Shown here: piece after piece, positions 26,386 to 58,739 of the stretch
Layout of the letters: each line of letters opens with the position of its first letter
Position numbering within the stretch: the stretch's first letter is position 1
Origin: Phragmitibacter flavus
GTDB taxonomy: Bacteria > Verrucomicrobiota > Verrucomicrobiia > Verrucomicrobiales > Verrucomicrobiaceae
Assembly: GCF_005780165.1 (NCBI RefSeq)
Contig: NZ_VAUV01000001.1
Span: 62,001 to 126,000 of the forward strand
DNA: 64,000 bases
Direction of reading: 5' to 3'
Translations under genes and position numbers: made by a program
Notes under the pieces: model-generated
What the model saw: the letters and a program-made list of their open reading frames with translations, nothing else
Told to the model about the DNA's origin: nothing
Database searches by the model: none

Positions 26386-29523
<3,138 letters not shown>

Positions 29524-39690: not shown

Positions 39691-40989
39691 TCACCCAAAA
39701 ATGCTGGTGATCGGCTTCCCTTTGTCCGCAACAGTAAATGGTCGTTTGGTCGGCGAATACAAGACGTGATCCAATGGCAATCCCAACGCATAGGCGATGG
39801 TGGCATTAAAATCTGGGACGCTTACCTGATTTTCGGACACCTCAATGCCACGATCGGTTTTGCCATAGACCTGTCCACCGTTCACGCCACCGCCCCATAA
39901 AACCGAACTGAACGCCTTCGGATAATGGTCACGACCTTCGTTCTGATTCACATCGGGCGTGCGACCAAATTCCGTCGCCAGCACCACCAGCGTCTCGTCC
40001 AACAAACCGCGACTGTGCAAATCCGGCAACAACGCGCCCAATGCCTTATCCAAAATCTGACAACGCTCCGGCACACGCACAAAGTTGTCATTGTGGGTAT
40101 CCCAACCACCGAGATTCACCTCAATGAACCGCACCCCATGCTCCACCAGCCGACGTGCCAGCAAACACCCTTGTCCAAAGCTGTCGCTGCCGTAAGCCTC
40201 ATGCATCTCGTCGGATTCATGGCTTAGATCAAATGCCACCAAGTCCTTGCTTTTCATCACACTCACCGCATCCCGATACACGTCCGCATAGGCCTTCACT
40301 CCAGAATATTGGTAACTCTGTTGAAACTTCTGATCCAGCTTTGAAGCGAGCCCGAGCCGGTAATCAAAATCACTTTCGCTCAGCGATGAAAGTCTTTTGC
40401 TGTTCTGCAATCCACCCGCCGGATTGTTGATCACCAAAGGTGCCGCTGTCGCCGGGAAAAATCCGGCGCCCGGATGTTTGCTGTCGTTGGTGACAATGAC
40501 ACTGCCAGGCAATGCCGGATTCGACCGCCCTTGAAACGTCGTCAACCACGCGCCCATGCTTGGATGCCGCGTCGCCCCACGCATCGTGTAACTGGTATGT
40601 TGATAATAATTCCCCTGCTCATGTGCTCCTTGGGTTGAATTCAACGAATTGATCACCACTCCATGATGCATGCTCTTCGCCGTGTTGGGCAGGTATTCGC
40701 TGATCTGCACGCCGTCCGCTGAAGTCGCAATCGCCTTGGTCGCTCCCATCTGCTCACTTCCTGGAACGACTCCGAACGTATCGAGATGGCTCATCCCGCC
40801 ACTCATGTAGAGATAAATGACATTCTTCGCCGAGGCGATTTGTTTGGCCGCCGAAGCATCCGCAAACGGAGCCCCGTGCGCCCTGCCAGCAACCATCGGC
40901 AATACCGAAACGCCGAGGCAGGTTTTGGCTGCGCGAAGAACAAACTGGCGGCGACTAAGTTCGTCGGCTTTCAAATAGGATGTTTTCAT
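39691..40989 (-). CDS. DUF1501 exported protein
   Basis: 432 residues. Tat-type N-terminus (SRRQFVLRAAKTCLGVSVLPMVAG). DUF1501 motifs: NVIYLYMSGGMSHLDTFG, YYQHTSYTMRGATRHPSMGAWL, FIEVNLGGWDTHNDNF, VVLATEFGRTPDVNQNEGRDHYPKA, and VPDFNATIAYALGLPLDH. Second copy of the DUF1501 family in the window but only distantly similar to 29566-30981. Follows the DUF1549/1553 gene on the same strand with a 32-bp gap. Confidence 0.9.
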   Translation of the reverse strand: MKTSYLKADELSRRQFVLRAAKTCLGVSVLPMVAGRAHGAPFADASAAKQIASAKNVIYLYMSGGMSHLDTFGVVPGSEQMGATKAIATSADGVQISEYLPNTAKSMHHGVVINSLNSTQGAHEQGNYYQHTSYTMRGATRHPSMGAWLTTFQGRSNPALPGSVIVTNDSKHPGAGFFPATAAPLVINNPAGGLQNSKRLSSLSESDFDYRLGLASKLDQKFQQSYQYSGVKAYADVYRDAVSVMKSKDLVAFDLSHESDEMHEAYGSDSFGQGCLLARRLVEHGVRFIEVNLGGWDTHNDNFVRVPERCQILDKALGALLPDLHSRGLLDETLVVLATEFGRTPDVNQNEGRDHYPKAFSSVLWGGGVNGGQVYGKTDRGIEVSENQVSVPDFNATIAYALGLPLDHVLYSPTKRPFTVADKGKPITSIFG

Positions 40990-41021: not shown

Positions 41022-43133
41022 TTACTGAATGTAAAGAAACTGGGAGCTGGCGAGCAAGGCGTGACTGATGTCCTCCAACGCGCTATCTCCACGATCCCGC
41101 AGCACCTGCTGGAGGATCATGCGCTCATCGGCTGTCGGCAGCCGGCTCAGATAGGCTTGATACAACAACTCCACCCTTGCTTGTGGCGTGGCGGCTTTCT
41201 CGATTTGTTTGCCTAAATCCGAGTCGGGATGATTCAGGATCTCCGACGCCGGACTGTTCAACAAAGCCAGCGCCTGGGGGACCGTGGCATCATCCGTGGC
41301 GTTTTCGATCACTTCACGATCCGACTGGCCAAACGTGCGCAGGAAATGACCTGGCTTGGTTGGCGATGGCAGCTCCGATGCGCGCACGGAAAGGTTCAAC
41401 AACGTCCCGGCCTTGATCGCCTCCTGCCGTTCACTTCGCGACATGCTCATGCCCATCATCGAGTTGCGATCCGGGCGCATCACATTGTTCAAGCGATCCG
41501 GGCGATAACCAAGTTTCAAACCTTGCGCCCGCTCCTCGCCCACCAATCCTTCCAGCATCGCACTGCTTGCCTCACGACGAAGCCGCTGTGCCTGTCGCGT
41601 AAGACCTTTCGGATCTGATCCCGATTCTTTTTGCTCCGCCATTTCTGCTTTGAGTGCCGCGAGCTTTTCCTGACCTGCCTCACGCTGTTCCGTGTTTGCT
41701 TTCGCCAGTTCCACGATCTCGTCCATCTCCCTGGTCTCAATCGTGTCCTTGATCATTTTGATGTCCGCCAGGTATTCGTGAAGTTTGCTGCTGTCGGTGG
41801 AGATCTGATTGTCCACATTCCCCTTGGCCAGAGTTACCATGGAATCCCACACCTGCTCGGCACTCATGCGCCGCAGAATTGGACCCGTGAAATAGTAAGT
41901 TCCGCCCAATTCCACCTCGGTCGGATTGGCCATGCGTTGATAAGTCTGGGTGTTATACAACACGCGCAGGAACGATTTGATCGAATACTTCTTCTCCACC
42001 ATCAGCTGAGTCAAATAGTCCATCAACGGACCATTGGAGGGAACGGTCGAATCCGTCATCTCATCCACTGGCTCGATCAATCCGATCCCAAAAACTTTCT
42101 TCCACATGCGGTTGGCGATCACCGTTGAGAAACGTGGATTGTCAGGCGATGTCATCCACTGCGCAAACGCCTCAAGGTTGCTCTCACCTGGAGCCGCCAC
42201 CGCATCATGACCAAACATCACCTTGGGCTGGATGCGATCACCTGGCTTGGCGTCATCATAAGCATAATCCGCCGGCAACATCGGCAGCTTGTTGTCACTC
42301 CAGGCCACCTGCATGTAACGCAGCGGTTGCAGCACGTCCTTCAACGCCTCGCGCACCATGGCGACATCCTTGCGGTTCACCCCATTGGTCATCTTCTGGC
42401 GCATCGCGCGGCGCTCCTGTTTCGACATGGCGGCGACTTCCTCTTTCGAAGGTCGTTTCATGCCGCCGCCCTTCAACATTCCATAACCCACCCTCGTATC
42501 CATGCCATTGGTATAAGCCGCCATCCCGTAATACTCGAGCTGCGTCATTTTATCGAACGGATGATTATGGCATTGTGCACAAACAATCGAAGTTCCCAAA
42601 AACACCTGAACCGTGTAGGCGAGATGATCCAGTTTGTTCTCATCACGCATGTAAAAGCCAATCGCGCCGCTGTCCCATGCGCCGCCTTCAGTCGTCATCA
42701 ACTCGCGCACCAACACATCGTAAGGCGTATTGGCCTTCAGTTGTTTTTTCACAAATTCCGCGTAGGCATCTGCCGTGGCACGACCCCGCACATTGTCCGT
42801 CAACCGCAGCAGATCCGCCATGTAGTTGAACATGTGACTGGTGTAGCCATCGGAGGCCAGCAACTGATCAATCAGCTTGGTGCGCTTGTGTGGATCGCGA
42901 GACGACACGAACTGCTGCGCCTCTTCCACGGTGGGAATGCGCCCGACAATGTCGAGATACAAACGCCGCACCAACACGTCATCGGGGGCGGCGGCATTGG
43001 GCTGCAGGTTTTGCTTTTTCCAAACTTCAGCAAGAAGCGAGTCGATCTTCTGACTCTCTGGCATGGCCGCCATGGCCTGGAAAAGACAGCCTGCGAGTAA
43101 AAGCAGGCAAAGGGACAGGGAGGTGGTTTTCAT
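41022..43133 (-). CDS. DUF1549-DUF1553 exported protein
   Basis: 703 residues. Signal peptide MKTTSLSLCLLLLAGCLFQAMAA. DUF1549: DDVLVRRLYLDIVGRIPTVEEAQQFV, MFNYMADLLRL, and the CAQCHNHPFDK motif, which could bind haem. DUF1553: RFSTVIANRMWKKVFGIGLIEPVDEM, then FLRVLYNTQTYQR, and a C-terminal repeat of DDATVPQALALLN. A central charged coiled-coil segment (IVELAKANTEQREAGQEKLAALKAEMAEQKE) is unusual. No separate PSCyt1 domain, unlike the protein at 26386-29523. Confidence 0.9.
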   Translation of the reverse strand: MKTTSLSLCLLLLAGCLFQAMAAMPESQKIDSLLAEVWKKQNLQPNAAAPDDVLVRRLYLDIVGRIPTVEEAQQFVSSRDPHKRTKLIDQLLASDGYTSHMFNYMADLLRLTDNVRGRATADAYAEFVKKQLKANTPYDVLVRELMTTEGGAWDSGAIGFYMRDENKLDHLAYTVQVFLGTSIVCAQCHNHPFDKMTQLEYYGMAAYTNGMDTRVGYGMLKGGGMKRPSKEEVAAMSKQERRAMRQKMTNGVNRKDVAMVREALKDVLQPLRYMQVAWSDNKLPMLPADYAYDDAKPGDRIQPKVMFGHDAVAAPGESNLEAFAQWMTSPDNPRFSTVIANRMWKKVFGIGLIEPVDEMTDSTVPSNGPLMDYLTQLMVEKKYSIKSFLRVLYNTQTYQRMANPTEVELGGTYYFTGPILRRMSAEQVWDSMVTLAKGNVDNQISTDSSKLHEYLADIKMIKDTIETREMDEIVELAKANTEQREAGQEKLAALKAEMAEQKESGSDPKGLTRQAQRLRREASSAMLEGLVGEERAQGLKLGYRPDRLNNVMRPDRNSMMGMSMSRSERQEAIKAGTLLNLSVRASELPSPTKPGHFLRTFGQSDREVIENATDDATVPQALALLNSPASEILNHPDSDLGKQIEKAATPQARVELLYQAYLSRLPTADERMILQQVLRDRGDSALEDISHALLASSQFLYIQ

Positions 43134-43287: not shown

Positions 43288-44205
43288 CTACTCCGCCCCC
43301 ATGCCCAGATAAAGCGACGCGACCTTGCCCTTTTGAATGTGCACAAACAGCCCCAAATACATGTTGCCGATGATCAGGGTTTCCCCCGGCGTGCTGTCGC
43401 GTTGGTTGATCAGATCTTGATAAGCAGCCGTCACCCGCGACTCTGGACTTCCAATTCGAATGCCCCGCGACGTCTCAATTTTCGAACCCGGACCCGCACT
43501 GATGTTGGCCAACGTTTTAAGTTTCTTTTCGGGATCAACGACAAAAGCCAGGCTCAGATCCAACGATTCGATTTCCCACATTTCAATCACATCGCCCGTG
43601 GCTTCCTGCATTTCCGCTTTGCCGCGAACGATCTTCGCCGGTTTTAACGCCGCTTCCACCTCCATCGCCTTCATCCCACTACGCAACGCTTTGCCATTGA
43701 GATAAAAGATCTCGTTTTCCACCACTTCATTTTCAATGCCTCCAATCACCTCGCTCAACAGCACCGCCTCAGCGTCTTTGTCACCGATTTTCCGATCCCC
43801 TTCGCTCAAGGCCACCATCTCCACCCCCGTGGCAAGCTCGGTCTTGCTGGCTGCCTTGTCTTCAGCGGTGGTCTCGTTTCCTTCCTCATCAAAAAATGTC
43901 ACTTTGGTGCTGACCACCACCCGGAAATCATAAACCCCCGGCTGGCTTTCCTTCCCGGGCATCCTCGCGAAACACTCATAAGGACCAAGTGGACCCCCGG
44001 AAAGCTTCGGATAACCTTTGCCAATGCGTTCCCCCGTCGCCACCGGATGGAATTCCAAAGGCGACAACGTTTTGGCAAACGGTGATCGTTCGATCGCATA
44101 CGCCACATCCTCCCTAAACGGCAGCGAACCACCGGCGTGCAGGGAACACGCCGTCGTCAGCATGAGGATGAAAGTAGCTCGTCGGACCCAGGAATGCAGT
44201 TTCAT
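43288..44205 (-). CDS. Exported protein of unknown function, last gene of the secreted-protein operon
   Basis: 305 residues. Signal peptide MKLHSWVRRATFILMLTTACSLHA. The mature protein has VYDFRVVVSTKVTFFDEEGNETT and a helical segment with KALRSGMKAMEVEAALKPAKIVRGKAEM, then SRGIRIGSPESRVTAAYQDLI, like a periplasmic sensor or pilotin, but without diagnostic motifs. Starts 45 bp after the preceding gene of the run. Function unknown. Confidence 0.75.
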   Translation of the reverse strand: MKLHSWVRRATFILMLTTACSLHAGGSLPFREDVAYAIERSPFAKTLSPLEFHPVATGERIGKGYPKLSGGPLGPYECFARMPGKESQPGVYDFRVVVSTKVTFFDEEGNETTAEDKAASKTELATGVEMVALSEGDRKIGDKDAEAVLLSEVIGGIENEVVENEIFYLNGKALRSGMKAMEVEAALKPAKIVRGKAEMQEATGDVIEMWEIESLDLSLAFVVDPEKKLKTLANISAGPGSKIETSRGIRIGSPESRVTAAYQDLINQRDSTPGETLIIGNMYLGLFVHIQKGKVASLYLGMGAE

Positions 44206-44249
44206 AATGAGGGATGGTTGCCTGATCGGCGGAACTTGTGACCACTTAT

Positions 44250-46085
44250 CTATCTCGCGGCTTCATTCGAAGCCTCTGCATCTGTGGCATAAAGTTGCAA
44301 AACCTCCACCCGATTTGTTCCTCCAACAAACACCCGGTTCATTTCCGGTTCAATCGCCAGGGGACAGACATTTGGCTTTTTGGCATAGGCCGAAGGAAAA
44401 CTGCCGGAAAAATATCGTTTCGACACGACCGTGTCGCGATCCCGATCCGTCGGCTCAGGTGGCTCGACACTGACCGCAAACTTCCACACTTCATAATCCG
44501 CATTGTTGCATCCCAGAATCAGCAATCCGCCCGATGATTGCGGTGAGGTGTTGCCGAAACGCACCTGCTCAAACAAGCGCGTTCCCTGGCTTTCACCCAA
44601 GGTCTGCGCGCTCAACGGCACGACCGGGCGACCTCCATTGTAAAGACCCGCAGTGGAGGTCCGCGAATCTCCCACCACCGTGCCACGATCCCCACGAAAA
44701 TCCCAAATCACCACGCGACGTGCTTCCACCGTCCGCCCCCCTTCATCTTCCTCCCGCGAAAGCACCAAAACGATGGCACGACCATTCGGCGTGAACACAT
44801 GCTCCACCACTTTTTCCCCTTCCTGCGGACGATAATGACATACCGCCTCCAGATCCTTCGGCACCTGACCCTTCTTCAAAATCACGAACTGTCCTTCTTC
44901 TTCCGACAGGTTCTCGAACAGCAGAATGCCACCCGCCGCTGGCGATTGATAAGTCCAGAAATTCCCGGTCGGATCAAGCCTCACCACCGGACGGTCTGCC
45001 GTGCGCACCGCCGGTTCAAGCAACCGATCCGCCTCCGCCTTTCCATAAGCACCCAACACCCACCGTGTCTCCAACGTCGAAGAAGTGGTCATGCCCGAAG
45101 CAGGATCATAGTTCACGAATACCAGAAAACGTTCCAACGGATAATCTCCCATTCCTCCGAGATAATAGAAACACGAACTCAGATAGTTCGTCTTCTCCCG
45201 ACCGGCGACAAAGGTGGCATGCTCCAGCTGAACAACGCTGCCGTTGTATCCCTCACCAAACATTTCGCGCGGCACCGTGACCTTGCCCTTGATTCGGTAA
45301 GCGTTTTTGTCGCCAGCAGAACCCGACTCCACCAATCCCAGCACATCGACATTCTGCGCATGGCGCCCCCAGCGCGCCGATGTCAGCCAAGGTTGAAACT
45401 CATAGTAAGGTCGGATCAAGCGATGATGCGAACTGGCGCGTGTCACGGTATTGCTGAGCGCATTCAGCGAAAACATTCCCAGATTGCCATCGGTATCCAG
45501 CATGCCGGGCAATGCAATCTCCGCGATGCTCGCCCCGATGCTCTTCTCCACCTGAGCCTCCATAACGCCACGCGCATTCTTCCGCAACACCGGCATGGGA
45601 CTGTCCAGTTTCATCCAAAATTGTTCCATCAAAGCCTCCAATCCGGCATCTTCTGAAACCGATGCCGAAAGCGTCTTGATGCGCATAAACGGATCGCGCT
45701 GACACAACTGCGCCGATAGCGTGAGCCTGCCGCCCGCCTCCACCGAGAAGGTTGGATTGATCAACAAATAGTCCGGCACCGCCCCCTCCCAATTGAGATT
45801 GATGGCACTAAGATCCGCAATCTTCGCAAGGCTTTGCAGGTCGCTGTTCGAGTCCATCACTTCAAAAAACTGCGACGTCGAATCATCCGAAGCTTGATGA
45901 AAGGCATTGTCCAAGGCCTCCGGACTGTAACCCACCGCCACCTTGGCCAGTGTAAAAGGCGCAGGTTGTAGCCGCCATTTGGGATAACTCAGCAGAAGAT
46001 CCTCGTTGGGATTTTCACCGCTCCCGACTACCGGGATCAGCATCCAAACAATCGTGGCGAGCAACACGTGGATAAGTCTGGTCAT
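44250..46085 (-). CDS. Exported protein of unknown function, possibly beta-propeller
   Basis: 611 residues from the ATG at 46085 (MTRLIHVLLATIVWMLIPVVGSG signal peptide). The start overlaps the stop of the upstream gene by 4 bp. The second half has repeated blade-like segments: GDYPLERFLVFVNYDPASG, RLDPTGNFWTYQSPAAGGILLFENL, EHVFTPNGRAIVLVLSREEDEG, and AIEPEMNRVFVGGTNRVEVL, suggesting a propeller. No metal or catalytic motif recognised. Part of a seven-gene run. Confidence 0.72.
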   Translation of the reverse strand: MTRLIHVLLATIVWMLIPVVGSGENPNEDLLLSYPKWRLQPAPFTLAKVAVGYSPEALDNAFHQASDDSTSQFFEVMDSNSDLQSLAKIADLSAINLNWEGAVPDYLLINPTFSVEAGGRLTLSAQLCQRDPFMRIKTLSASVSEDAGLEALMEQFWMKLDSPMPVLRKNARGVMEAQVEKSIGASIAEIALPGMLDTDGNLGMFSLNALSNTVTRASSHHRLIRPYYEFQPWLTSARWGRHAQNVDVLGLVESGSAGDKNAYRIKGKVTVPREMFGEGYNGSVVQLEHATFVAGREKTNYLSSCFYYLGGMGDYPLERFLVFVNYDPASGMTTSSTLETRWVLGAYGKAEADRLLEPAVRTADRPVVRLDPTGNFWTYQSPAAGGILLFENLSEEEGQFVILKKGQVPKDLEAVCHYRPQEGEKVVEHVFTPNGRAIVLVLSREEDEGGRTVEARRVVIWDFRGDRGTVVGDSRTSTAGLYNGGRPVVPLSAQTLGESQGTRLFEQVRFGNTSPQSSGGLLILGCNNADYEVWKFAVSVEPPEPTDRDRDTVVSKRYFSGSFPSAYAKKPNVCPLAIEPEMNRVFVGGTNRVEVLQLYATDAEASNEAAR

Positions 46086-47956
46086 GGTGCAAACGGGTCG
46101 TTGATAAAGTGAAGGGACTTGAAGGTGGCGTCGAACGCTTTTGGGTCTTGTGCCCATTTATCCCGGAAATCGAACAGCGGCTTCGGCCAGATCTTCTTTT
46201 CCGTTGCCGTGCCTGTTGGTGTTTTCACCACCCCGAACACGTGAAGCTCCTTAACCCCAGCGAGACTTGCATTGAGCGCTTGAAAGGCGTCGAGACTCTG
46301 GGCCAGTTGAGCGCAGCCGGGAAAGTAGTGACCACTCTTGTTGCTGATGGCGATGAGGATGCCCTTATCAACCTTGATCTCGCCGGCACCAGCCACATCC
46401 GCAGCACTGAGAAACGAGGAGTGATGAAATAGGGAAACCTTGTGGGTCCCGGCAAAAATTTCACCATCCGGGCTGACGACATAGATGGCCCAGCCCTTCC
46501 CGGAAAACGCCGTGGAATGATTTTGGGTGTCAAACACCACGCCACCGCACATTAGCAGACCTTTCTCGACCTTGAGTTTGTAGGGCGCGCGATCCAAGTC
46601 CGTTTTGAGATACTCCACGCTAAGGTTTTTCTTGAAGAAATCCACGAGGACCAAATCCTCTTCGAACCTGGCATCCGGCATATCTTGTTTGGTAATGGTC
46701 TTGGGATCCAGGTCCGCAAACGACACTTGACGGCAGTAATTGAGGGCCGCCGGGTAGTCTCCTGGATAGTGCCTTTGAACCACCAGCTCGCAAATCGACT
46801 GGAGAAACAGCGCACGATAGTTTTTGTAGTCGACGCCCAGGGTTGGCACGAGGCTGTCCTTGAAACGTTGGATATCCCCTTCATTGATGCGTTTCACCAG
46901 ACCCGGTCGGTTGAAGACGATTCCTTCGACCACGCCTGAAATGGAGGCCCAAACATTGACCACGGGCTTGACTTCTTCCAGAAAACTGGCGGTGGGTTTT
47001 GCGGACTTGGTGTCGATGACATACTTATGATTCACGCTTTTTGTCAGCGGATGTTTTGGCAAAACGCCCAGCTTCAAGTTTGCAAGCGCCTTGGTAGCAT
47101 AAGTCCGCAACATCTGATCACCCGCCTCCGTCTGCCCGCGGAGGACGGGCTTGTTCAGACAGGCGCGATACATCTGTGCCGCCCAGATGTTGTCCCCATT
47201 TTCCCGGAACAGCTCCGCCGCGTTGTAGAGCAGGCTGAGGGCGGTCAGGTTGACCATCTTTTTGTCCGGCGTGGAAAAGATCTTCGCCACCCCAGGCGTG
47301 CACCCTTTCAAATCTCCAGCAGAGATATTCAAGGTGTAGCCATTGGTAATGGCCAGTTCCCGCAGCTCCAGTGCGGCGGCAGAAACTTCATCGGTGGTGA
47401 TGCTGGCGGTGTTGAGCACGCTGAGCAGCAGTGCGCGCGCGATATCGTAATTGGCGGCAACCGCAGACTTGCGGTAGCACTCTGCGGCACGCACGCACCA
47501 GCTGTTGTTCAAGCTGACGGCATAAACTTCATCACACTTCTTTGCGGCCAGCACCCAGGCGTCTGACCGCCCGTTTGGCGCGATTTTTTCTGCAAGCTCA
47601 ATGGCAACCGCAGCCTCCCATTCCGCAAACTGGATGGCGTCGGATTTTTTTTTGAGTTCAGCCTGGAGAAGGCCGATCAACGCGGGATCGGCCTGCAGGT
47701 TCTTAACCGCAGGCTTGCGGGCCAGTTTGGGACGGGGCGGACTGGCGGCGGGCCCTGTGACCGGCGGCGCGCCATAGGCGTCCGCAGGGAGTTGGTCATT
47801 GTCACCATCATCGTCATCGTCCGAGGGTTGAGTCCTGCCGGTTCCGGGTAGGACAAGGAGGATTAACAAGGTAATGATCGAAAGTCCCTTGAGCGACCGA
47901 TTAACCCGGTAAGGTAATGGCATTGGCAAACGTTTTTCTTGGGTGGAAAACTTCAT
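46082..47956 (-). CDS. Exported TPR-like protein with C-terminal SNKSGHY domain (paralogue 2)
   Basis: 624 residues from the ATG at 47956; MPLPYRVNRSLKG at 47923 is an alternative. Signal sequence SIITLLILLVLPGTGRTQ, then an acidic linker (DDDDDGDNDQ) and a proline-rich stretch. The middle is helical and repeat-like (YNAAELFRENGDNIWAAQMYRACL). The C-terminal roughly 170 residues have GWAIYVVSPDGEIF, FHHSSFLSAADVAGAGEIKVDKGILIAISNKSGHYFPG. The upstream gene encodes a paralogue with the same domain order. Function unknown. Confidence 0.75.
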   Translation of the reverse strand: MKFSTQEKRLPMPLPYRVNRSLKGLSIITLLILLVLPGTGRTQPSDDDDDGDNDQLPADAYGAPPVTGPAASPPRPKLARKPAVKNLQADPALIGLLQAELKKKSDAIQFAEWEAAVAIELAEKIAPNGRSDAWVLAAKKCDEVYAVSLNNSWCVRAAECYRKSAVAANYDIARALLLSVLNTASITTDEVSAAALELRELAITNGYTLNISAGDLKGCTPGVAKIFSTPDKKMVNLTALSLLYNAAELFRENGDNIWAAQMYRACLNKPVLRGQTEAGDQMLRTYATKALANLKLGVLPKHPLTKSVNHKYVIDTKSAKPTASFLEEVKPVVNVWASISGVVEGIVFNRPGLVKRINEGDIQRFKDSLVPTLGVDYKNYRALFLQSICELVVQRHYPGDYPAALNYCRQVSFADLDPKTITKQDMPDARFEEDLVLVDFFKKNLSVEYLKTDLDRAPYKLKVEKGLLMCGGVVFDTQNHSTAFSGKGWAIYVVSPDGEIFAGTHKVSLFHHSSFLSAADVAGAGEIKVDKGILIAISNKSGHYFPGCAQLAQSLDAFQALNASLAGVKELHVFGVVKTPTGTATEKKIWPKPLFDFRDKWAQDPKAFDATFKSLHFINDPFAP

Positions 47957-47998
47957 AACTTGCGTAGTTAGATTGAATCTGGAAACTGCTTGTTTGAC

Positions 47999-49786
47999 TT
48001 AGGGTTTCAATGCATCCTCGGAGAAGCCCATTTTCAGGTAGGCGGTCTTGAAATCGGCAGGTTTCTTGTTCCACATATCCAGAAGATCCCTGGCAGTCCC
48101 CAGCCACTTCTTTTGTTCAGCCTTGCCTGCGGCCGTCGTGCCCTTCGGCAGCCCCATGACTTGAACCGTCGTGATCTTGGACAGATCCACTCCCATTTTT
48201 TCCAGAGCCTTGAGTGTCTGAACCAGTTGGATGACCGTCGGAAGATAATGACCACTCTTGTTGGAGATTTCGGTGATCACTCCGTTGTCTGCCTTGATCT
48301 CGCCGGCGCCGGCGGCGGGCGCTGCAGCGATCAGTGAAGAATGATGAAACCGTCCTCTGGCGTGCGAGGACACCAACAGTTCGCCATCGGGGCTGAGCAC
48401 GTAGATTCCCCAACCGTCTCCGGAGAAAACCGTGGAGAGTTTCTGCGTGGTGAAAACCTCTTTGTTGCGTTGCAGGAGTTTCTTCTTTGGATCAAAAGTA
48501 AGTTTGTAGGGAAGCCGTTCGGCCTCGCTCTTGAGGTATTTCACCGTCAGATTTTTGAAATACCCCACCCAGAGTGGGTCATCCTTGGACATCGGTTCAG
48601 GCAGTTCATGCGGTGCTGGCTGGATGGACAAACCTTTGAAGAGATTCTCTTCATCGCAAAGCGCGAGCACTTTCGCATACGAAAAGCTGTCCGGGCCTTT
48701 TAGTTGGCGAATTTTATAACAGTAGGTCTGAAGATAAAGTGGGCGGTAGCGGTTGAACTCCACCCCCAGGATCTTTTTCAGAGAGTTCTTGAATTCGGTA
48801 ATGTCCGTGTTTTTGACGGGCACGGTTGGCTGACTGGCGCTCATGGGTGCCAGGCGGTCCACAATGGCGAGGATGCTGGCCCAGGTTTTTTGATCAGCAA
48901 GATATTCCTCCTTCCAGGCGGGATGGTTCGTGACGCTGGCATCCTTGATGTATTCCGATGAGACGTTGACGGTGACCGGGTAGTCTGGAACTTCGTTCAG
49001 TTTCAGGCCAGCGAGACCCTTGCGGCATTGGCTTTTCAGTTCCTCACCAACGCCGTCAAGCTTAAGGCAGCGGCGATACATGGCGGCGGCCCAAATGAAG
49101 TCGCCATGTTCATGAAAGAGTTTTCCTGACCAATAAGCTAGCGGGTAACTTTTCGGAGAGGAAACGGAAACTCTGTCAGACAAAAGCTTGGCGATTTCAT
49201 AGTCGAACGAACCCAGATCTTTCTTTTCTAGAACCATCTCATAGCCGTCGCTTTCGATCAGTTTAATCAATCCATAGCAGATCTGGACGACCGATGGCGC
49301 ACTTTGGGGGCCGGGTTTCATAGACGCCAAGGCCAGCATCAGGCACTTTCTGGCCTCGTCATAACCCTGCTTCGTCTTGAGCACCATGAAGGTGTCAGCT
49401 GCCGCCAGCAACAACACAGGCGAAGGGTTTGGTTCCGTCCTGAATCTGGCGGCGAATTGTTGCGCGAGCGCATTCACCGCGACCAGATCTTTCTTCACCT
49501 TCTTAAGCTCCGTTTCCTGCTGCTGCCAGATGAGCGTTTCCGGGTCCAGGTTGCTGACCTGGCTCGTGGATGCCGAAGTCGATGAACCCGCCGCTCCTGC
49601 CGTGGTTGACGTGGCAGATGAAGCCCCCGGATCCGCAGTCGACGCATCGGGCGTGAAACCGTCATCATAGACGTCATCGTATGGTTGTGCCCAGGCTGCA
49701 CCGCCCGCAAACAGCAGGAACGCGGTGAAGGTCAATGCCAGTGATGCGGTCGATCGTTTTCTTGGTGAATGGTCGTTGCTCGTCAT
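47999..49786 (-). CDS. Exported TPR-like protein with C-terminal SNKSGHY domain (paralogue 1)
   Basis: 595 residues from the ATG at 49786, preceded by AAGGAG at a good spacing. Signal sequence (LALTFTAFLLFAGGAAWAQ), then a long Ser/Thr/Ala-rich linker. The middle includes GKLFHEHGDFIWAAAMYRRCLKLDG, the same motif as paralogue 2. C-terminal domain: GWGIYVLSPDGELLVSSH, RFHHSSLIAAAPAAGAGEIKADNGVITEISNKSGHYLPT. The FHHSS, AGAGEIK and NKSGHY motifs are shared with other uncharacterised proteins I recall, but I cannot name the domain. Confidence 0.75.
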   Translation of the reverse strand: MTSNDHSPRKRSTASLALTFTAFLLFAGGAAWAQPYDDVYDDGFTPDASTADPGASSATSTTAGAAGSSTSASTSQVSNLDPETLIWQQQETELKKVKKDLVAVNALAQQFAARFRTEPNPSPVLLLAAADTFMVLKTKQGYDEARKCLMLALASMKPGPQSAPSVVQICYGLIKLIESDGYEMVLEKKDLGSFDYEIAKLLSDRVSVSSPKSYPLAYWSGKLFHEHGDFIWAAAMYRRCLKLDGVGEELKSQCRKGLAGLKLNEVPDYPVTVNVSSEYIKDASVTNHPAWKEEYLADQKTWASILAIVDRLAPMSASQPTVPVKNTDITEFKNSLKKILGVEFNRYRPLYLQTYCYKIRQLKGPDSFSYAKVLALCDEENLFKGLSIQPAPHELPEPMSKDDPLWVGYFKNLTVKYLKSEAERLPYKLTFDPKKKLLQRNKEVFTTQKLSTVFSGDGWGIYVLSPDGELLVSSHARGRFHHSSLIAAAPAAGAGEIKADNGVITEISNKSGHYLPTVIQLVQTLKALEKMGVDLSKITTVQVMGLPKGTTAAGKAEQKKWLGTARDLLDMWNKKPADFKTAYLKMGFSEDALKP

Positions 49787-49821
49787 GGTTGCTCCTTGAT
49801 TGATGCTCTTCAGTTGGTTGG

Positions 49822-51741
49822 TCACTCGTCGACCAGGATAAGTCCTTCGGCGCCTCCCGGTTGGTTGATCCATTTTCCTGGTTTAACGGGGGATTGGTAT
49901 TCGACGTCCAACTCGGTGATACCCGCGAGCGTTCGGAGCGGCAGTTCCAGCACCGCAGATCCTTCCGATTGAGATACGGTGATCGGATAATTCGTGGTAT
50001 CTCCAGGATATCGGAGACTCACGGTGACTTGGTCCGCGTTGATCGTGGTGAAGATTGGAGCGTCCACCCAAACCGTGATCGGAAGTTTTTGGTCCCGCGC
50101 TTCGACAATTCTGAAGTCAGGGGCCTTGATGCTGCCCTTGATGGTGGCACCCACCTTGGCTTCGGTGCGACCCACGAAATAGGAGTCGATGGACAGGTCC
50201 AGCGGAAGCCCCTGCCCGTCAGTATTGAGGAAGAGCTCCCGCAACGCAAAAGCCTCGCTTTCCTTGGACGACAGCTTCAGGAGCAGACGATTGCGTGCAT
50301 CCCGTTTGCATAGGGGCACGGTGAGTGAGGGCACTTTCTTTTCGCCATCGGAATCAAGCGCCAGGCTGGCGGTGAAGTGATCCGGCAATCCGGTTTCCAA
50401 ATTTGCTTCCAACAAGGCGGCATGCTGGTATTGCTCAGCCAGTTCCTTCTGCACCGGATTTATCTGATCCGCCGCAAGGGCAAAATCCGGCGTGGCTTGC
50501 AAGGACATAAGGAAAATCAGGTCCCGGTTGGGAACCTTGAATTGCACGGGAGTTGCCGAGGGATTCCAGCGCACCTGATCGGGCAGCAGTCGGGCTTTCT
50601 TGGTGCGAATGTTGTAAAAAACGACCCAGAGTTGACCCGCTACTCTGATAGGAAGACGAAACACCAAATCCTCCAGCCTCGAACGGGCATTGGATAGCGC
50701 GGTCAATACTCGGCTCTGTTCCGCGTCGCCAAGTTCGGTCGACAACACCCTGGTCAACTCTTCGGCGAGCAACAGCTGAACGAGCACGGCGTTTGCCTCG
50801 CCGAAATCTTTGGATTTAAAATCGTATTGCGTGAGCAACTGCTGCGCGTCGGCAAGCAGACGGCTCAACAAGGTGCGTTGCAAACGCTGCAAATCGAGCG
50901 CCAGCACGCGGTCCGCCTGCTTGAACCACAGCGCACAAAGATTGCCGTTGTTGATCACCAGCGGGGCATTGGCTGCGATGGCCTGACCCGTCAGCCATTT
51001 TTGAATCTGCGGGGCAAAGGGTTTGCCATCCGTGGTGTTGCCAAGTTTTTCCAAGGGCAGGTTGATCTTCCGGGTGGAAGAATAAGGGCCGATGGCTAAG
51101 GTGAAATCGGCGGACAAATTCAGCGTTTGCTGATCCTTGTCGAAACCCAGTTGAACGGTGTATTCAAACCCGGACGATGGGGGAACGGACGACAACAAAA
51201 CCGCGTTGGCTTGGGGTGCCGCTTTAACCACCGCCTCCGCTGGCCAGGGATTGGGTGTTGTCGCCACATCGACAAAGCGATTGTCCGAATCCGAATACTG
51301 CACCGCGATCGACTGGCTGGTATTGAACAACTTAAACGCAAGGACGCCCGCTCCCTGCTTGATGTCCGCATCGCGGATCTGACAATCGACGGCGCCATGC
51401 AGTTCCCTGGTTTGCCCGGCCGCGTTGCCCTCGCCAGCGGCGAAGCTTAACTCAACCAGTCGATAGCCCATCTTCTCTGGCTGCACGCGATTAAAAACCG
51501 AAGTCTCCAGCCACACCAGCGAACGTTCGTCTCCAAGTGCCAGTCCACGCAATTTGGCAGGGGCTTGAATCGCTGTCCGTTTAGCTGAGGTCAATCGAAC
51601 GTCGGGAGCGATCACCGCGTAGAACTCGCGCGCCTGCGGAAAATGCAACAGGGGTGCCTGATTGTCGTCGGCGTGCACTTGTGCCGACAATACCCATGCC
51701 GATGCCACCACGGCGATGCCCGACAACCAGCAACGTCTCAT
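49822..51741 (-). CDS. Exported protein of unknown function
   Basis: 639 residues with signal peptide (MRRCWLSGIAVVASAWVLSAQVHA). Its ATG overlaps the stop of the upstream gene by 4 bp. Mostly beta-strand-like sequence (VVELSFAAGEGNAAGQ-type segments; FKVPNRDLIFLMSLQATP), ending with immunoglobulin-like ADQVTVSLRYPGDTTNYPITVSQSEGSAVLELPL. A helical part lies near 290-345 (LLSRLLADAQQLLTQYDF). No catalytic motif identified. Confidence 0.74.
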   Translation of the reverse strand: MRRCWLSGIAVVASAWVLSAQVHADDNQAPLLHFPQAREFYAVIAPDVRLTSAKRTAIQAPAKLRGLALGDERSLVWLETSVFNRVQPEKMGYRLVELSFAAGEGNAAGQTRELHGAVDCQIRDADIKQGAGVLAFKLFNTSQSIAVQYSDSDNRFVDVATTPNPWPAEAVVKAAPQANAVLLSSVPPSSGFEYTVQLGFDKDQQTLNLSADFTLAIGPYSSTRKINLPLEKLGNTTDGKPFAPQIQKWLTGQAIAANAPLVINNGNLCALWFKQADRVLALDLQRLQRTLLSRLLADAQQLLTQYDFKSKDFGEANAVLVQLLLAEELTRVLSTELGDAEQSRVLTALSNARSRLEDLVFRLPIRVAGQLWVVFYNIRTKKARLLPDQVRWNPSATPVQFKVPNRDLIFLMSLQATPDFALAADQINPVQKELAEQYQHAALLEANLETGLPDHFTASLALDSDGEKKVPSLTVPLCKRDARNRLLLKLSSKESEAFALRELFLNTDGQGLPLDLSIDSYFVGRTEAKVGATIKGSIKAPDFRIVEARDQKLPITVWVDAPIFTTINADQVTVSLRYPGDTTNYPITVSQSEGSAVLELPLRTLAGITELDVEYQSPVKPGKWINQPGGAEGLILVDE

Positions 51742-53075
51742 GGCTGCTCCTTTCGCTTGTCCGTATCGGTTCGCAAAAGGTCCATGACATCGTCAGGATT
51801 CAACTGCACAAAGGCATCGAAATTCGGAATGCGCGATTCCATCCAATCCAACGGCTGTCCAAGACGAATGATCTTCCCAGACAGCGTCATCCCAAACACC
51901 ACGCGCCACTTCATTTTTAACTGGGCCGAGTATCGCCCCTTGAGTTCCTTGATGAACGGTTTGGTGGCGTCGGCTTGATCGCCAGGGACCGGCAGCGAGA
52001 CGGTCGCCTTCGTGATGTAACCCGACAGCGGATCGACTAACTCCACTTCCACAGCAAGGCTCTTAAGTCCGGTTTGAGTCCAGTCATCCAACAGCACAAA
52101 GTGAATGCGTTGTCGGGTCTCGCGTGCAAATCCATCGACGTTCAACCATGTCTCGGTCCACGCTGCCTCCTGTGCATTCACATCGAGCAACACGTAGCGC
52201 TCGACCTCCGCCCAACCATCCCATGTCAGGTCGATGCTTTTTTGCGGCGTGGCATTCTCCTTCCAAACGACCACCGGCACGGCTCCCACGGCACTTGCCG
52301 AATTCGCCAAACGATAGTCCATCCAAGCCATGCGCATCGCGGTGAATGCGGCCAGCAAGATGGCCTCATCATCATCCACCATTCGGATGCCTTCCTGCGC
52401 GGCACAAAACTTCACAAAAGGAACGACCTCAGTGAGCGTTATCAATACAGGATCCGGCTGGCCAACTGCATCCAACAACTGCAAATCCATCGGGTGATTT
52501 TTCCTCCACCCGAGCATCGCCGCTCGAACCGCTTGCGGGTCCGCCGAAAAACGAATTCCATTTCCCGTCAGCGCTTCATGATCCTGGACCACCAGATGCG
52601 TGCGGATGGACAGCGGTCGACTGGCTTCCGCTTTCCGATCTCGCAACAGATCGACGTCCTCACGCCGCAGCGAGATGGCGACAAACGATTCAACAAAAGA
52701 CGGTTCAACCTCACCCGGCGTCGCGCCACGGTGGCTTCCCGCAAACCATTCCACGCTTTTCCATTTGATGGGCACTGGCAGCCTTTGGGTCGCCGAAGCC
52801 GGGGTTTCAGCCTTCACTTTGAAAGTCAGAAATCCCCCCTGCAATGCGAGACCCGATTCCAGGTCCGGTGTGCTGTCGTCCTGCTCCTGGGTCAATTGAT
52901 AGATGCCAAGATGCAGACCTCCACTCACCGACCATTTTTGGGGAAGCCCCAGCGGTTTCCGATCACGGGAATAAAACACCAGCTCGCCGTCCGCAGCCAT
53001 TGCGTGGTCGCCGACAACGACAAAGGTCAACGCCATGAGACCGGGCAAGTTCAGAACGAATGAACCTCGTTTCAT
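51738..53075 (-). CDS. Exported protein of unknown function
   Basis: 445 residues with signal peptide (MKRGSFVLNLPGLMALTFVVVGDHAMA). Beta-rich N-terminal half (GELVFYSRDRKPLGLPQKWSV; GGFLTFKVKAETP) followed by a helical region (VVPFVKFCAAQEGIRMVDDDEAILLAAFTAMRMAWMDY) and an end rich in strands (KSLAVEVELVDPLSGYITKATVSLPV). Separated from the upstream gene by 47 bp and overlapping the downstream one by 4 bp. No family recognised. Confidence 0.74.
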   Translation of the reverse strand: MKRGSFVLNLPGLMALTFVVVGDHAMAADGELVFYSRDRKPLGLPQKWSVSGGLHLGIYQLTQEQDDSTPDLESGLALQGGFLTFKVKAETPASATQRLPVPIKWKSVEWFAGSHRGATPGEVEPSFVESFVAISLRREDVDLLRDRKAEASRPLSIRTHLVVQDHEALTGNGIRFSADPQAVRAAMLGWRKNHPMDLQLLDAVGQPDPVLITLTEVVPFVKFCAAQEGIRMVDDDEAILLAAFTAMRMAWMDYRLANSASAVGAVPVVVWKENATPQKSIDLTWDGWAEVERYVLLDVNAQEAAWTETWLNVDGFARETRQRIHFVLLDDWTQTGLKSLAVEVELVDPLSGYITKATVSLPVPGDQADATKPFIKELKGRYSAQLKMKWRVVFGMTLSGKIIRLGQPLDWMESRIPNFDAFVQLNPDDVMDLLRTDTDKRKEQP

Positions 53076-53122
53076 GGCGTGACATCATTGATCATCAATG
53101 GGAAGCCGCTTGGAACCAGCGT

Positions 53123-55279
53123 CTAGCTGCCGGACAACGCCTTGCCCACATCAATGACAATCAGGTCGCCCACCAGAATCCCCTCGTTGACCTGAACGCC
53201 TTTTTTGTCACCGGCATTGATGAGGAACTCGATCTTCATCGGCGTGTCACTGCCATCTGGATTCAAGAACAGAAACAGGTCCTCGGTCACCGTAAAAAAG
53301 CCATCGGAATCCGGTTTCAAGTTCTCCAGGGGAATCGACGAGGCGACTGGCTTGCGTGAGGTATCCACCGCATACCGCTCAAGCCATTGTTCCGCACCTT
53401 CCAGAGCACCATCGGGTTTGACCTTCACCAATTGACGGGTCCAAGCGCTGACCTGCTGGGTGATTTTTGGCACCACGGCCACATTGCCAGCCCAGTCCAC
53501 GGACTTGGTGGAATCAACGACGCGAAACATGAAACCTCCACGCCTCGGCAAGGGCGGCAGACTGGACTCGGAAATCATTCCGGCCGTGCCATTGATCTTC
53601 GCCGCATCCAGCACGATCTTTTGACCTGAACCATACAGATTGTTGAACACCGCCCTCGCTTGATTGAGCGATGCCAGCACATTTTTCGATTCCAATCCAG
53701 ACACTCCGGCAGCTTCCAATCGTGAGCGGTCGGCCGCATTGCCGGCGGATGCGAGCGCATACTTGACGGTGAACACGGTGTCGCGATTGACCTTGGCCCC
53801 ACCGTCGAGCAGTGATCCATCGGGACCGGTAATCGGCGGGATGTTGACCGGACCAAACTTGAACGTGTAGCCATTCGCCGGTGCCTGTGCCCAGTCGGAC
53901 ATCACTGCGAGTTTGCCTTTGGCGGGATCATTCGAATCGGCCAGCGTGGCTTTGAAAAGTTTGTCCGCATAGGTGCATTCCACCGAGGAAATGTTGAACC
54001 ACGGAGAAACATCCGGGGCCACCGCGATGGTGGGCCGCGCCACCGACCAGTCGCTGGCCTGCGCTTCGGTGTAATGACGTTTGGTATTGCCGGGTTTGTA
54101 GGAGAAATCCAGCACAGCAAAACGCGAGTCCGACTTGGTCAGTTTGGTGCGCCCGGACCAGTTGAAGGTAAAGTCTTTCTGCTCCGACTTCTGCGACTGC
54201 TTCATCGAGAACGAAAAGGCAAGACCGGCTTTTTTCTCGGGAAGATTGGCCGGGGTTCCATCGAGATTTTTTTTGCCTTCGTTGAGGTTAACCGCCTCCA
54301 TCTGCGGCTCGCCCTTGCCCTCGGCCAGTCCCGGCATCGGGGACACGGTGGAAAAATCCATGAAGTTCTCCAACACCTTGTCCACCACTTTGCTCTTGAT
54401 GCGATCCACCAACTCGTCGTCCTTGCCAGCGTCGCCCAATACCGTCACCTTGATGGCATTGCTCTGCAGCAGGCTTTGTTTGAAATTTTCGTAGTCGGCA
54501 CTCCCTTTGAAGAACCAGTATTGGCCTTCCACCCCTGTTTTGATGTGATCCGTCTTCATGATGGAGGAAGACTTGCCCGTCACTTCCACCGAATAGTCGT
54601 TGTCGTAACCTTCATAAGAGAAAGCGAGATAGGCAGTGAAGGGCGCGTTCGACGTGCCCGATGGGGTCTCCACGATAGGCTTGAGAATGTCGAGGGCGGA
54701 CCGTGTCAGCGGAATGGTGACGGAGAAAACATCATCGGTAAGCGGTGCCGGAATTGGACCCAGCTTCACGCTTTTGCCGCCTTCCTCTGGATTGATGTAT
54801 TCGATGTAAATATTGGCACCGCGCAGTGGAAGTCTGCCCAGCTTTTGTCCGGGCTTGAGCACCTTTTTGCGGATGATATCCAGCGCGCCTGGATCGAGTC
54901 CGAAATCGAACGTGGCCTGGAACACCCCTCCCTGAAGCACCCTGCCATCTGGGTCCACGGCGAGGCTGCCCTTCTCGTCGTAAATCTGGTCGCCCGAATA
55001 CGCCAGATTGTATTTGGTCACCGTCCACATCGGCTCACCCTGACTGTCCTTCATGAACCGGATGGTGGAAGGCAGGTAATAAAATTGATTGGGATTTTTC
55101 AGCGACTGGAAAAGGGTGTCCATGCCCGTCGACTTGAAGGCCGAACTGGACAGGTCAAGCGCCTGGGTTTCCTCCTCAATCAAAGCGTCCGAGGCCACCA
55201 GTGCCGAACCTTGGAAAGACAGCCAGGCTCCGCAAAGAAGCGCACCAAAATGGGTAAAATGCCGGATGGATAATTTCAT
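53123..55279 (-). CDS. Large exported protein, first gene of the secreted-protein operon
   Basis: 718 residues from the ATG at 55279 (MKLSIRHFTHFGALLCGAWLSFQGSALVA). Predicted all-beta domains: FKSLKNPNQFYYLP-type opening, GGVFQATFDFGLDPGALDIIRKKV, and FTAYLAFSYEGYDNDYSVEV. A helical insert (DELVDRIKSKVVDKVLENFMDF) and a late segment with PLPRRGGFMFRVVDSTKSVDW. No recognised catalytic or binding motif. Likely first gene of the run: the next upstream gene is divergent and starts at 55508, leaving a 228-bp intergenic region for promoters. Confidence 0.75.
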   Translation of the reverse strand: MKLSIRHFTHFGALLCGAWLSFQGSALVASDALIEEETQALDLSSSAFKSTGMDTLFQSLKNPNQFYYLPSTIRFMKDSQGEPMWTVTKYNLAYSGDQIYDEKGSLAVDPDGRVLQGGVFQATFDFGLDPGALDIIRKKVLKPGQKLGRLPLRGANIYIEYINPEEGGKSVKLGPIPAPLTDDVFSVTIPLTRSALDILKPIVETPSGTSNAPFTAYLAFSYEGYDNDYSVEVTGKSSSIMKTDHIKTGVEGQYWFFKGSADYENFKQSLLQSNAIKVTVLGDAGKDDELVDRIKSKVVDKVLENFMDFSTVSPMPGLAEGKGEPQMEAVNLNEGKKNLDGTPANLPEKKAGLAFSFSMKQSQKSEQKDFTFNWSGRTKLTKSDSRFAVLDFSYKPGNTKRHYTEAQASDWSVARPTIAVAPDVSPWFNISSVECTYADKLFKATLADSNDPAKGKLAVMSDWAQAPANGYTFKFGPVNIPPITGPDGSLLDGGAKVNRDTVFTVKYALASAGNAADRSRLEAAGVSGLESKNVLASLNQARAVFNNLYGSGQKIVLDAAKINGTAGMISESSLPPLPRRGGFMFRVVDSTKSVDWAGNVAVVPKITQQVSAWTRQLVKVKPDGALEGAEQWLERYAVDTSRKPVASSIPLENLKPDSDGFFTVTEDLFLFLNPDGSDTPMKIEFLINAGDKKGVQVNEGILVGDLIVIDVGKALSGS

Positions 55280-55507
55280 GATGTTAAGTCGGAGATGCTG
55301 AACTTTGCCAATGGATGCAGATGGCCCTCCAGTCCCACTACCGCCGCCGCCCAAATACACCCCCGGAGAGCAAAATCTCCGTTTGGCATTGGTAGGTAAG
55401 CGGTGGTAATTGACCGTGGTTTTAGTAGTAGCCTCCTTCCTTGTGCCCAACGGCCCTTCCTTCGTAACGGTGATGACGAAAAAAAAGAAAATCTCTCAAA
55501 GCCTTCC

Positions 55508-58639: not shown

Positions 58640-58739
58640 CGGCGCAGAAGGTAGAATGTTTTTGCTCGATGACAAGGCGAATCCCGGTCACCATGATTCT
58701 CCATTGAATCCTCCTTGCCTGACGGTGTAGCCTGTCCCC

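What the first reader, a model, noticed from the sequence alone, without database searches (positions are those of the whole stretch)
46082..49786. Tandem paralogues ending in an FHHSS/AGAGEIK/NKSGHY domain
Adjacent genes encode proteins with the same order: signal, low-complexity linker (acidic in one, Ser/Thr-rich in the other), TPR-like middle with WAAxMYRxCL, and a C-terminal domain with strict motifs. Conserved His, Ser and Lys residues (FHHSS, NKSGHY) look like a catalytic or ligand site. Similar motifs occur, from memory, in uncharacterised and toxin-associated proteins.
Basis: partly seen in the sequence, partly recalled or inferred. Interest (0 to 1): 0.55.

Follow-up and report, generated by a model that had tools for sequence, protein, structure and literature searches.

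The report
Paired secreted Tox-EDA39C toxin-domain proteins
Two neighbouring bacterial genes make secreted proteins that end in Tox-EDA39C, a known but apparently untested toxin domain thought to cut RNA and also reported at the tail of the plant defence regulator EDA39/IQM1; the domain is not new, but this two-gene, immunity-free, exported form is unusual.

Summary
Two adjacent minus-strand genes (46082-47956, 47999-49873; the second probably starts at the ATG at 49786) encode paralogues, 35% identical over 486 aa and 48% identical in the C-terminal domain. A profile built without any Verrucomicrobial sequence finds only these two among 879 frames of the window (E 1.5e-29, 5.4e-27). No Pfam or NCBIfam model covers the domain. 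It fits the printed description of Tox-EDA39C (Zhang et al. 2012: alpha+beta; H, Sx[HS]Y; two histidines; predicted metal-independent RNase; shared with plant EDA39 = IQM1). Elsewhere the domain tips LXG, WXG/T7SS, PAAR and RHS toxins, and 15 of 35 loci carry one homologous small gene directly downstream, probably immunity. The window copies instead have a Sec-like signal and no such gene. AlphaFold models are confident (pLDDT 90.7, 93.6). No solved fold matches clearly; both models rank phosphohistidine phosphatase PHPT1 first (Z 3.4, 4.9; weak). Best reading: exported, self-safe, two-histidine phosphodiester-cleaving effectors. Activity is untested.

The parts
47999..49873 (-). First gene of the pair (P0001, 624 aa as the longest ORF; likely start ATG at 49786)
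46082..47956 (-). Second gene of the pair (P0002, 624 aa; a second in-frame ATG at 47923 precedes the hydrophobic segment)
   Evidence: 42 bases after the first gene's stop
49688..49786 (-). Probable Sec-type signal segment of the first gene (MTSNDHSPRKRS...LLFAGGAAWA)
   Evidence: read from the translation; no signal-peptide predictor was run
47828..47923 (-). Probable Sec-type signal segment of the second gene (MPLPYRVNRSLKGLSIITLLILLVLPGTG...)
   Evidence: read from the translation; no predictor was run
49064..49093 (-). WAAAMYRRCL motif in the helical-looking middle of the first protein
47156..47185 (-). WAAQMYRACL motif in the middle of the second protein
48116..48553 (-). Tox-EDA39C domain of the first protein (about residues 441-586)
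   Evidence: profile hits, AlphaFold model; borders approximate
46196..46630 (-). Tox-EDA39C domain of the second protein (about residues 443-587)
   Evidence: profile hits; borders approximate
48335..48349 (-). FHHSS (residues 509-513; H511 is the family-invariant histidine)
48245..48262 (-). NKSGHY (residues 538-543; S540, G541, H542, Y543 invariant)
46415..46429 (-). FHHSS (residues 510-514; H512 invariant)
46325..46342 (-). NKSGHY (residues 539-544)
43288..55450 (-). Same-strand, tightly packed run of large ORFs that holds the pair (53123-55450, 51738-53075, 49822-51741, the pair, 44250-46157, 43288-44205); probable operon, none of these neighbours has a Pfam family above its curated cut-off
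   Evidence: overlaps or short gaps between successive ORFs

Best explanation
Both proteins are Sec-exported carriers of a Tox-EDA39C domain. SHOWN: the domain, its invariant His and Ser-Gly-His-Tyr, its use as the C-terminal tip of LXG, WXG/T7SS, PAAR and RHS toxins in other bacteria, and a recurrent small gene directly downstream in those toxins but not here. INFERRED: the domain is a metal-independent enzyme that uses two histidines (H511 and H542 in the first protein), with Ser and Tyr, to cleave a phosphodiester bond, most likely of RNA, by transesterification; the two invariant motifs sit next to the N-terminal ends of two helices flanking a beta-hairpin and would hold the phosphate between them. 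INFERRED: because the window proteins leave the cytosol through the Sec route, the maker's RNA is never exposed to the folded enzyme and no immunity gene is needed; the helical middle part and linker would anchor or display the domain outside the membrane, and the target would be a neighbouring cell, a grazer or free nucleic acid. The tandem pair is a lineage-specific duplication in which the domain was kept and the linkers drifted.
For: Domain and homology. Invariant H and SGHY. Domain more conserved between the paralogues (48%) than the rest (27-41%). Delivery modules fused upstream in 8 of 22 carriers scanned (LXG L013 and L024, WXG100_2 L015 and L028, PAAR L034, T7SS_signal L035, RHS L032 and L039). 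Downstream helical gene family A in 15 of 35 loci (17 of 3138 frames, all on the toxin's strand; 15 start at the toxin's end, 2 are second copies) and family B in 3 more. Published prediction as two-histidine RNase, with the same motif, phyla and delivery routes. Confident alpha+beta models.
Against: No activity has been measured here, and none was found in the papers searched. No solved structure matches clearly, so an RNase fold is not shown; the only recurrent fold neighbour is a phosphatase. The window pair lacks both a dedicated delivery module and an immunity gene, which the proven toxin form has, so a toxin role here is extrapolated. Signal peptides were judged by eye. The neighbouring genes give no hint: no family hits, and two of them have no relative in the other 56 genomes.
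Confidence: 0.5

Rival explanations
1. A phosphatase-like or phosphotransfer enzyme on a PHPT1 (Janus) fold: the domain binds a phosphorylated protein or small molecule rather than RNA. The invariant His at a helix start would match PHPT1 His53, and the SGHY loop before the next helix would match the PHPT1 phosphate loop at Ser94-Ala96.
For: PHPT1 is the top VIA-align match of both independent models: Z 3.4 over 82 residues at 3.7 A (2ai6) and Z 4.9 over 83 of 113 residues at 3.0 A (2nmm; next row Z 2.6). Passages of PMC4817053 place PHPT1's phosphate contacts at the NH of His53, Ala54 and Ala96 and the OH of Ser94, in two loops around its sheet; order and setting resemble the helix and strand order of the models.
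Against: Z under 8 may be only a common arrangement (the tool's own note); Foldseek reports no match at E<=0.001; PHPT1 is not among the sequence hits of the family profile; no residue pairing is printed, so the matching of residues is my inference; the second invariant His (of SGHY) has no stated counterpart in those passages.
Confidence: 0.17
2. Domesticated, non-toxic role: the pair are envelope or extracellular proteins of this lineage that use the domain as a regulator or binding module, as the plant EDA39/IQM1 proteins may do.
For: No immunity gene, no delivery module, operon of lineage-specific exported proteins; the same domain is reported at the C terminus of plant EDA39, which is IQM1, a calmodulin-binding protein that acts through catalase 2.
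Against: Both copies keep every invariant residue, and the domain is the best conserved part of the pair, which fits retained catalysis.
Confidence: 0.25
3. Decayed or orphan toxin cassettes without present function.
For: Isolated occurrence: 6 of 56 related genomes have the domain, in other architectures.
Against: Both frames are open over their whole length, and the motifs are intact in both.
Confidence: 0.05

Closest known systems
Tox-EDA39C toxin domain (Zhang et al. 2012, PMC3482391)
   Same: Motif H then Sx[HS]Y, alpha+beta, C-terminal, found with RHS, T6SS, LXG and signal-peptide ('T2SS') proteins, Verrucomicrobia in its list.
   Different: Window copies sit behind a signal, a linker and a helical middle in a tandem pair with no immunity gene. 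The paper's table names Imm-SuFu as partner; here two other small families recur downstream in relatives. Whether my sequences are in the paper's alignment was not checked (its Additional File is not held).
Plant IQM family (EDA39 = At4g33050 = IQM1)
   Same: Reported by Zhang et al. to end in the same domain. The motif in IQM proteins as I remember it is the same, but that is recall.
   Different: Cytosolic or nuclear calmodulin-binding proteins with an IQ motif; no plant sequence was available to align.
LXG and WXG/T7SS polymorphic toxins (Listeria plasmid L013; Nocardia L015 and L027-L031)
   Same: Same C-terminal domain.
   Different: They have a T7SS targeting domain and an adjacent small gene; the window pair has neither.
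PHPT1 phosphohistidine phosphatase (Janus fold)
   Same: Best fold neighbour of both models, perhaps a similar phosphate-binding layout.
   Different: Weak Z, no sequence similarity found, one more invariant His in the toxin domain.

Membership tests
Tox-EDA39C | Conserved H in the first half and Sx[HS]Y in the second half | tested here: met
   H511/H512 and SGHY in both window copies; invariant in 38 of 38 covering rows of 39 proteins; motif text from PMC3482391
Tox-EDA39C | alpha+beta fold | tested here: met
   AlphaFold models, mean pLDDT 90.7 and 93.6, mixed helices and strands
Tox-EDA39C | C-terminal tip of polymorphic toxins (RHS, T6SS, LXG) or of secreted proteins | tested here: met
   Homologues fused to LXG, PAAR, RHS, WXG100_2 and T7SS_signal; window copies C-terminal behind a signal segment
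Tox-EDA39C | Sequence homology to the published alignment or to plant EDA39 | not testable with these tools
   Additional File 1 of the paper and plant sequences are not held; the match rests on motif, phyla, delivery routes and architecture
Tox-EDA39C | RNase activity (itself only a prediction in the paper) | not testable with these tools
Classical polymorphic toxin system (delivery module + toxin tip + immunity gene) | Dedicated delivery or trafficking domain | tested here: not met
   No LXG, WXG, PAAR, RHS or other delivery family in either window protein at E<=1; only a signal segment
Classical polymorphic toxin system (delivery module + toxin tip + immunity gene) | Adjacent immunity gene | tested here: not met
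   Next genes are large exported-looking ORFs without family hits; immunity family A profile: 0 matches at E<=10 in the own genome (a search without positive control; the sister profile does find the family in other loci). An unknown immunity type is not excluded
PHPT1 / Janus (Pfam Ocnus PF05005) | Same fold | tested here: inconclusive
   Top VIA match of both models but Z 3.4 and 4.9
PHPT1 / Janus (Pfam Ocnus PF05005) | Sequence match to the family model | tested here: not met
   No PF05005 hit at E<=1 in the Pfam scan of the window proteins
TPR proteins | TPR repeats recognised by a family model | tested here: inconclusive
   No TPR model at E<=1; phmmer E 0.1 to an engineered TPR protein over residues 240-281

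The most novel reading that the evidence does not exclude
Tox-EDA39C is not an RNase A look-alike but a PHPT1-like (Janus-fold) phosphate-handling enzyme that bacteria turned into a transferable toxin tip and plants took up as the C-terminal half of the IQM immune regulators; the window pair is an exported, immunity-free branch of it that acts outside the cell.
Probability: 0.2. Interest if true: 0.7.

Novelty: new member of a known kind. Interest (0 to 1): 0.4.

Why it matters
The domain was named in 2012 and is used by T6SS, T7SS and RHS toxins and, by that report, by a plant defence regulator, yet in the papers searched it has no measured activity, and no Pfam or NCBIfam model hits it here, so annotation pipelines call its carriers hypothetical. 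Fixing its active site and chemistry would tell what a widespread toxin tip does, and would make the function of the IQM C terminus directly testable. The exported, immunity-free pair is a convenient form to study. The small gene family found downstream is a candidate immunity family without a Pfam or NCBIfam model.

Tried and rejected
Pfam, NCBIfam, PHROGs and PADLOC scans of the window proteins: no family above its curated cut-off (weak hits such as DUF6958 and SidM_N are far below cut-off). PDB by sequence: nothing relevant. Phage records: no match (0 of 50,697). First genome-contig scan with a window peptide found no relative. Motif strings in the literature: 0 papers. Type III injection of the signal-less Verrucomicrobiaceae relatives: rejected as a general route, because HrcV (TIGR01399) is found in 4 of 35 genomes, and none of the genomes G000, G002, G012, G013 and G020, which carry the domain, is among them (G023 and G034 were not in that draw). 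Viral-contig locus L026: dropped as a chance hit (short match in a tail-fibre-like protein); it is left out of the counts. PF05005 in 194 genomes of the phylum: 0, but the control rang nowhere, so this shows nothing. Foldseek in viral models: G8DGH9 (E 1.5e-5) and E5EQ39 (E 5e-3) match the fold but carry no name in the tool, so they were not used. RNase A, BECR and deaminase folds do not appear among the listed fold matches except chance-level deaminase rows; this absence excludes nothing.
Full report
WHAT IS THERE. Two adjacent genes on the minus strand, 47999-49873 and 46082-47956, encode proteins of 624 aa each, 35% identical over 486 aa. Region by region, the paralogues share 48.0% in the C-terminal domain (152 aligned residues), 40.7% around WAAxMYRxCL, and 27-30% in the other four regions. 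They lie in a same-strand run of closely spaced large ORFs, 55450 to 43288, several of which start with a hydrophobic signal-like segment. The five non-paralogous ORFs of that run have no Pfam family above its curated cut-off, while the next genes downstream belong to the PSCyt2/PSD1 and DUF1501 families and the one upstream is a protein kinase with TPRs. Two of the neighbours were sought in 56 related genomes and found in none. The own genome holds only these two copies of the domain.

HOW FAR THE DOMAIN REACHES. Full-length search in relatives: 7 of 57 genomes including the own one. Plasmids: 11 of 72,556 records. Phage records: none. Viral contigs: 6 loci, one of which I dropped as chance. 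Genome contigs: 21 loci from Nocardia, other Actinomycetota, Holophagae, Noviherbaspirillum, Chryseobacterium, Gammaproteobacteria, Bacteriovorax, Bdellovibrio, an Alphaproteobacterium and Verrucomicrobiaceae. A profile of 16 rows without Verrucomicrobia finds both window copies (E 1.5e-29 and 5.4e-27, the only 2 of 879 frames) and all 14 of 14 other carriers tested.

WHAT THE RELATIVES SAY. Of 22 carriers scanned with Pfam or NCBIfam, 8 have a recognised delivery module in front of the domain: LXG (L013 2.6e-38, L024 4.9e-38), WXG100_2 (L028 1.8e-8; L015 2.1e-5, just under its cut-off), PAAR (L034 1.2e-14), T7SS_signal (L035 1.2e-25), RHS (L039 4.1e-19) and the RHS core (L032 1.3e-10). The other 14 have none, among them all four signal-less Verrucomicrobiaceae proteins scanned. 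Directly downstream of the toxin gene lies a small gene. A profile of nine of these (family A) hits 17 of 3138 frames in 35 loci: 15 loci, each at the toxin's end and on its strand, plus second copies in L034 and L035. A profile from actinobacterial members alone still finds the PAAR-linked one (2.6e-7) but not those of L014, L036, L039 and L041. A second family (B) joins the LXG-type loci L013, L023 and L024 (55-69% identity), and the L. marthii locus L020 carries a near-identical copy. The remaining 16 of the 35 loci have neither: L016-L019, L021, L022, L025, L026 (the chance hit), L032, L037 and L042-L047. Of the seven family A or B genes scanned with Pfam or NCBIfam beyond the first, and the three scanned first, none has a family above cut-off. 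These are the marks of polymorphic toxins with immunity genes. The window pair has neither mark: no delivery family and no family A match in its genome at E<=10 (that search had no positive control).

ACTIVE SITE. Over 39 proteins, one His and Ser-Gly-His-Tyr are invariant in all 38 rows that cover each of those columns; an Ala and a Gly between them and the proline after SGHY are nearly so. Searches searched partly with an SGHY pattern, which biases those rows; loci are free of that bias and agree, and one weak relative (L011) has SGSY. The Lys of NKSGHY and the first His of HHSS vary.

STRUCTURE. AlphaFold gives confident models of the window domain (20 sequences; pLDDT 90.7, pTM 0.86) and of the Nocardia domain L027 (19 sequences; pLDDT 93.6, pTM 0.88). 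In both, a beta-hairpin is followed by a short helix that starts at the invariant His, a second hairpin, the SGHY loop, and a long helix. Foldseek finds no PDB match at E<=0.001 for either. VIA-align ranks PHPT1 first for both (Z 3.4, 82 residues, 3.7 A; Z 4.9, 83 of 113 residues, 3.0 A), with the next row at Z 2.6. The tool warns that Z under 8 may mean only a common arrangement. PHPT1 holds phosphate with the NH of His53, Ala54 and Ala96 and the OH of Ser94 (passages of PMC4817053). That the invariant His and SGHY occupy the same places is my inference, not a printed alignment.

WHAT IS KNOWN. Zhang et al. 2012 (PMC3482391; I read section 29 whole, part 1 of section 47, and passages of section 5) describe Tox-EDA39C: alpha+beta; H, Sx[HS]Y; two conserved histidines; predicted RNase A-like metal-independent RNase; in T2SS, T5SS, T6SS and LXG proteins and RHS; Verrucomicrobia among its phyla; shared with plants, fungi and others and named after plant EDA39. 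EDA39 is At4g33050 (passages of PMC4969306), which is IQM1 (passages of PMC9795235). Two IQM papers (passages only) describe the IQM C terminus as similar to trichosanthin (PMC9853202, PMC8469326). Searches for EDA39C, EDA39 and At4g33050 (21 papers) and for EDA39 with RNase and toxin (2 papers) show no other toxin paper that uses the name. I saw titles, abstracts' starts and counts only for these, and the held library lacks most subscription journals.

HOW IT LIKELY WORKS. Shown: domain, invariants, toxin context in relatives, absence of a recognised delivery module and of a recognised immunity gene here. Inferred: two-histidine cleavage of a phosphodiester, most likely RNA; export by Sec; safety by compartment instead of by immunity; target outside the cell. 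The proteins of Bacteriovorax (L042), Bdellovibrio (L044), the viral contig L022 and Ca. Megaera (L019) also begin with a signal-like segment (read by eye) and also lack families A and B, so an exported immunity-free branch may be a recurrent form.

VERDICT. New here, at the level of sequence evidence: the window architecture, the two recurrent downstream families, and the weak but repeated PHPT1 resemblance.

Noticed in passing
L027-L031, L033-L036, L038-L041, L014, L015 (downstream of the toxin gene): A small, helical-looking gene family (about 95 aa core) recurs directly after Tox-EDA39C toxins of T7SS, PAAR and RHS type; no Pfam or NCBIfam model above cut-off in those scanned. Candidate immunity family.
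   Followed up: partly
L013, L020, L023, L024 downstream genes: A second, unrelated downstream family follows the LXG-linked version of the domain.
   Followed up: partly
L033:6431-7531: In Nocardia carnea the family A domain is fused in one ORF to a second Tox-EDA39C domain, and follows a short ORF with a first copy.
   Followed up: no
L047, L003/L043, L005, L008, L045: Verrucomicrobiaceae relatives carry the domain in signal-less proteins with Tyr-containing N-terminal repeats (e.g. GYSEPDLPDAPGIASD), reminiscent of injected effectors; the HrcV marker of type III secretion does not track with them.
   Followed up: partly
L017:3447-5414: The Nostoc plasmid protein begins with a segment that resembles, from memory, the DUF4157 region of contractile-injection cargo; Pfam gave no hit at E<=0.01.
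   Followed up: no
L025:5809-6243 and 6294 onward: A 325-kb viral contig carries two stand-alone copies of the domain in tandem.
   Followed up: no
window 26386-29523, 41022-43133 and 39691-40989: PSCyt1/PSCyt2/PSD1 and DUF1501 proteins, typical of the planctomycete and verrucomicrobial groups.
   Followed up: no
window 56261-58675: Serine/threonine protein kinase with TPRs upstream of the operon-like run.
   Followed up: no
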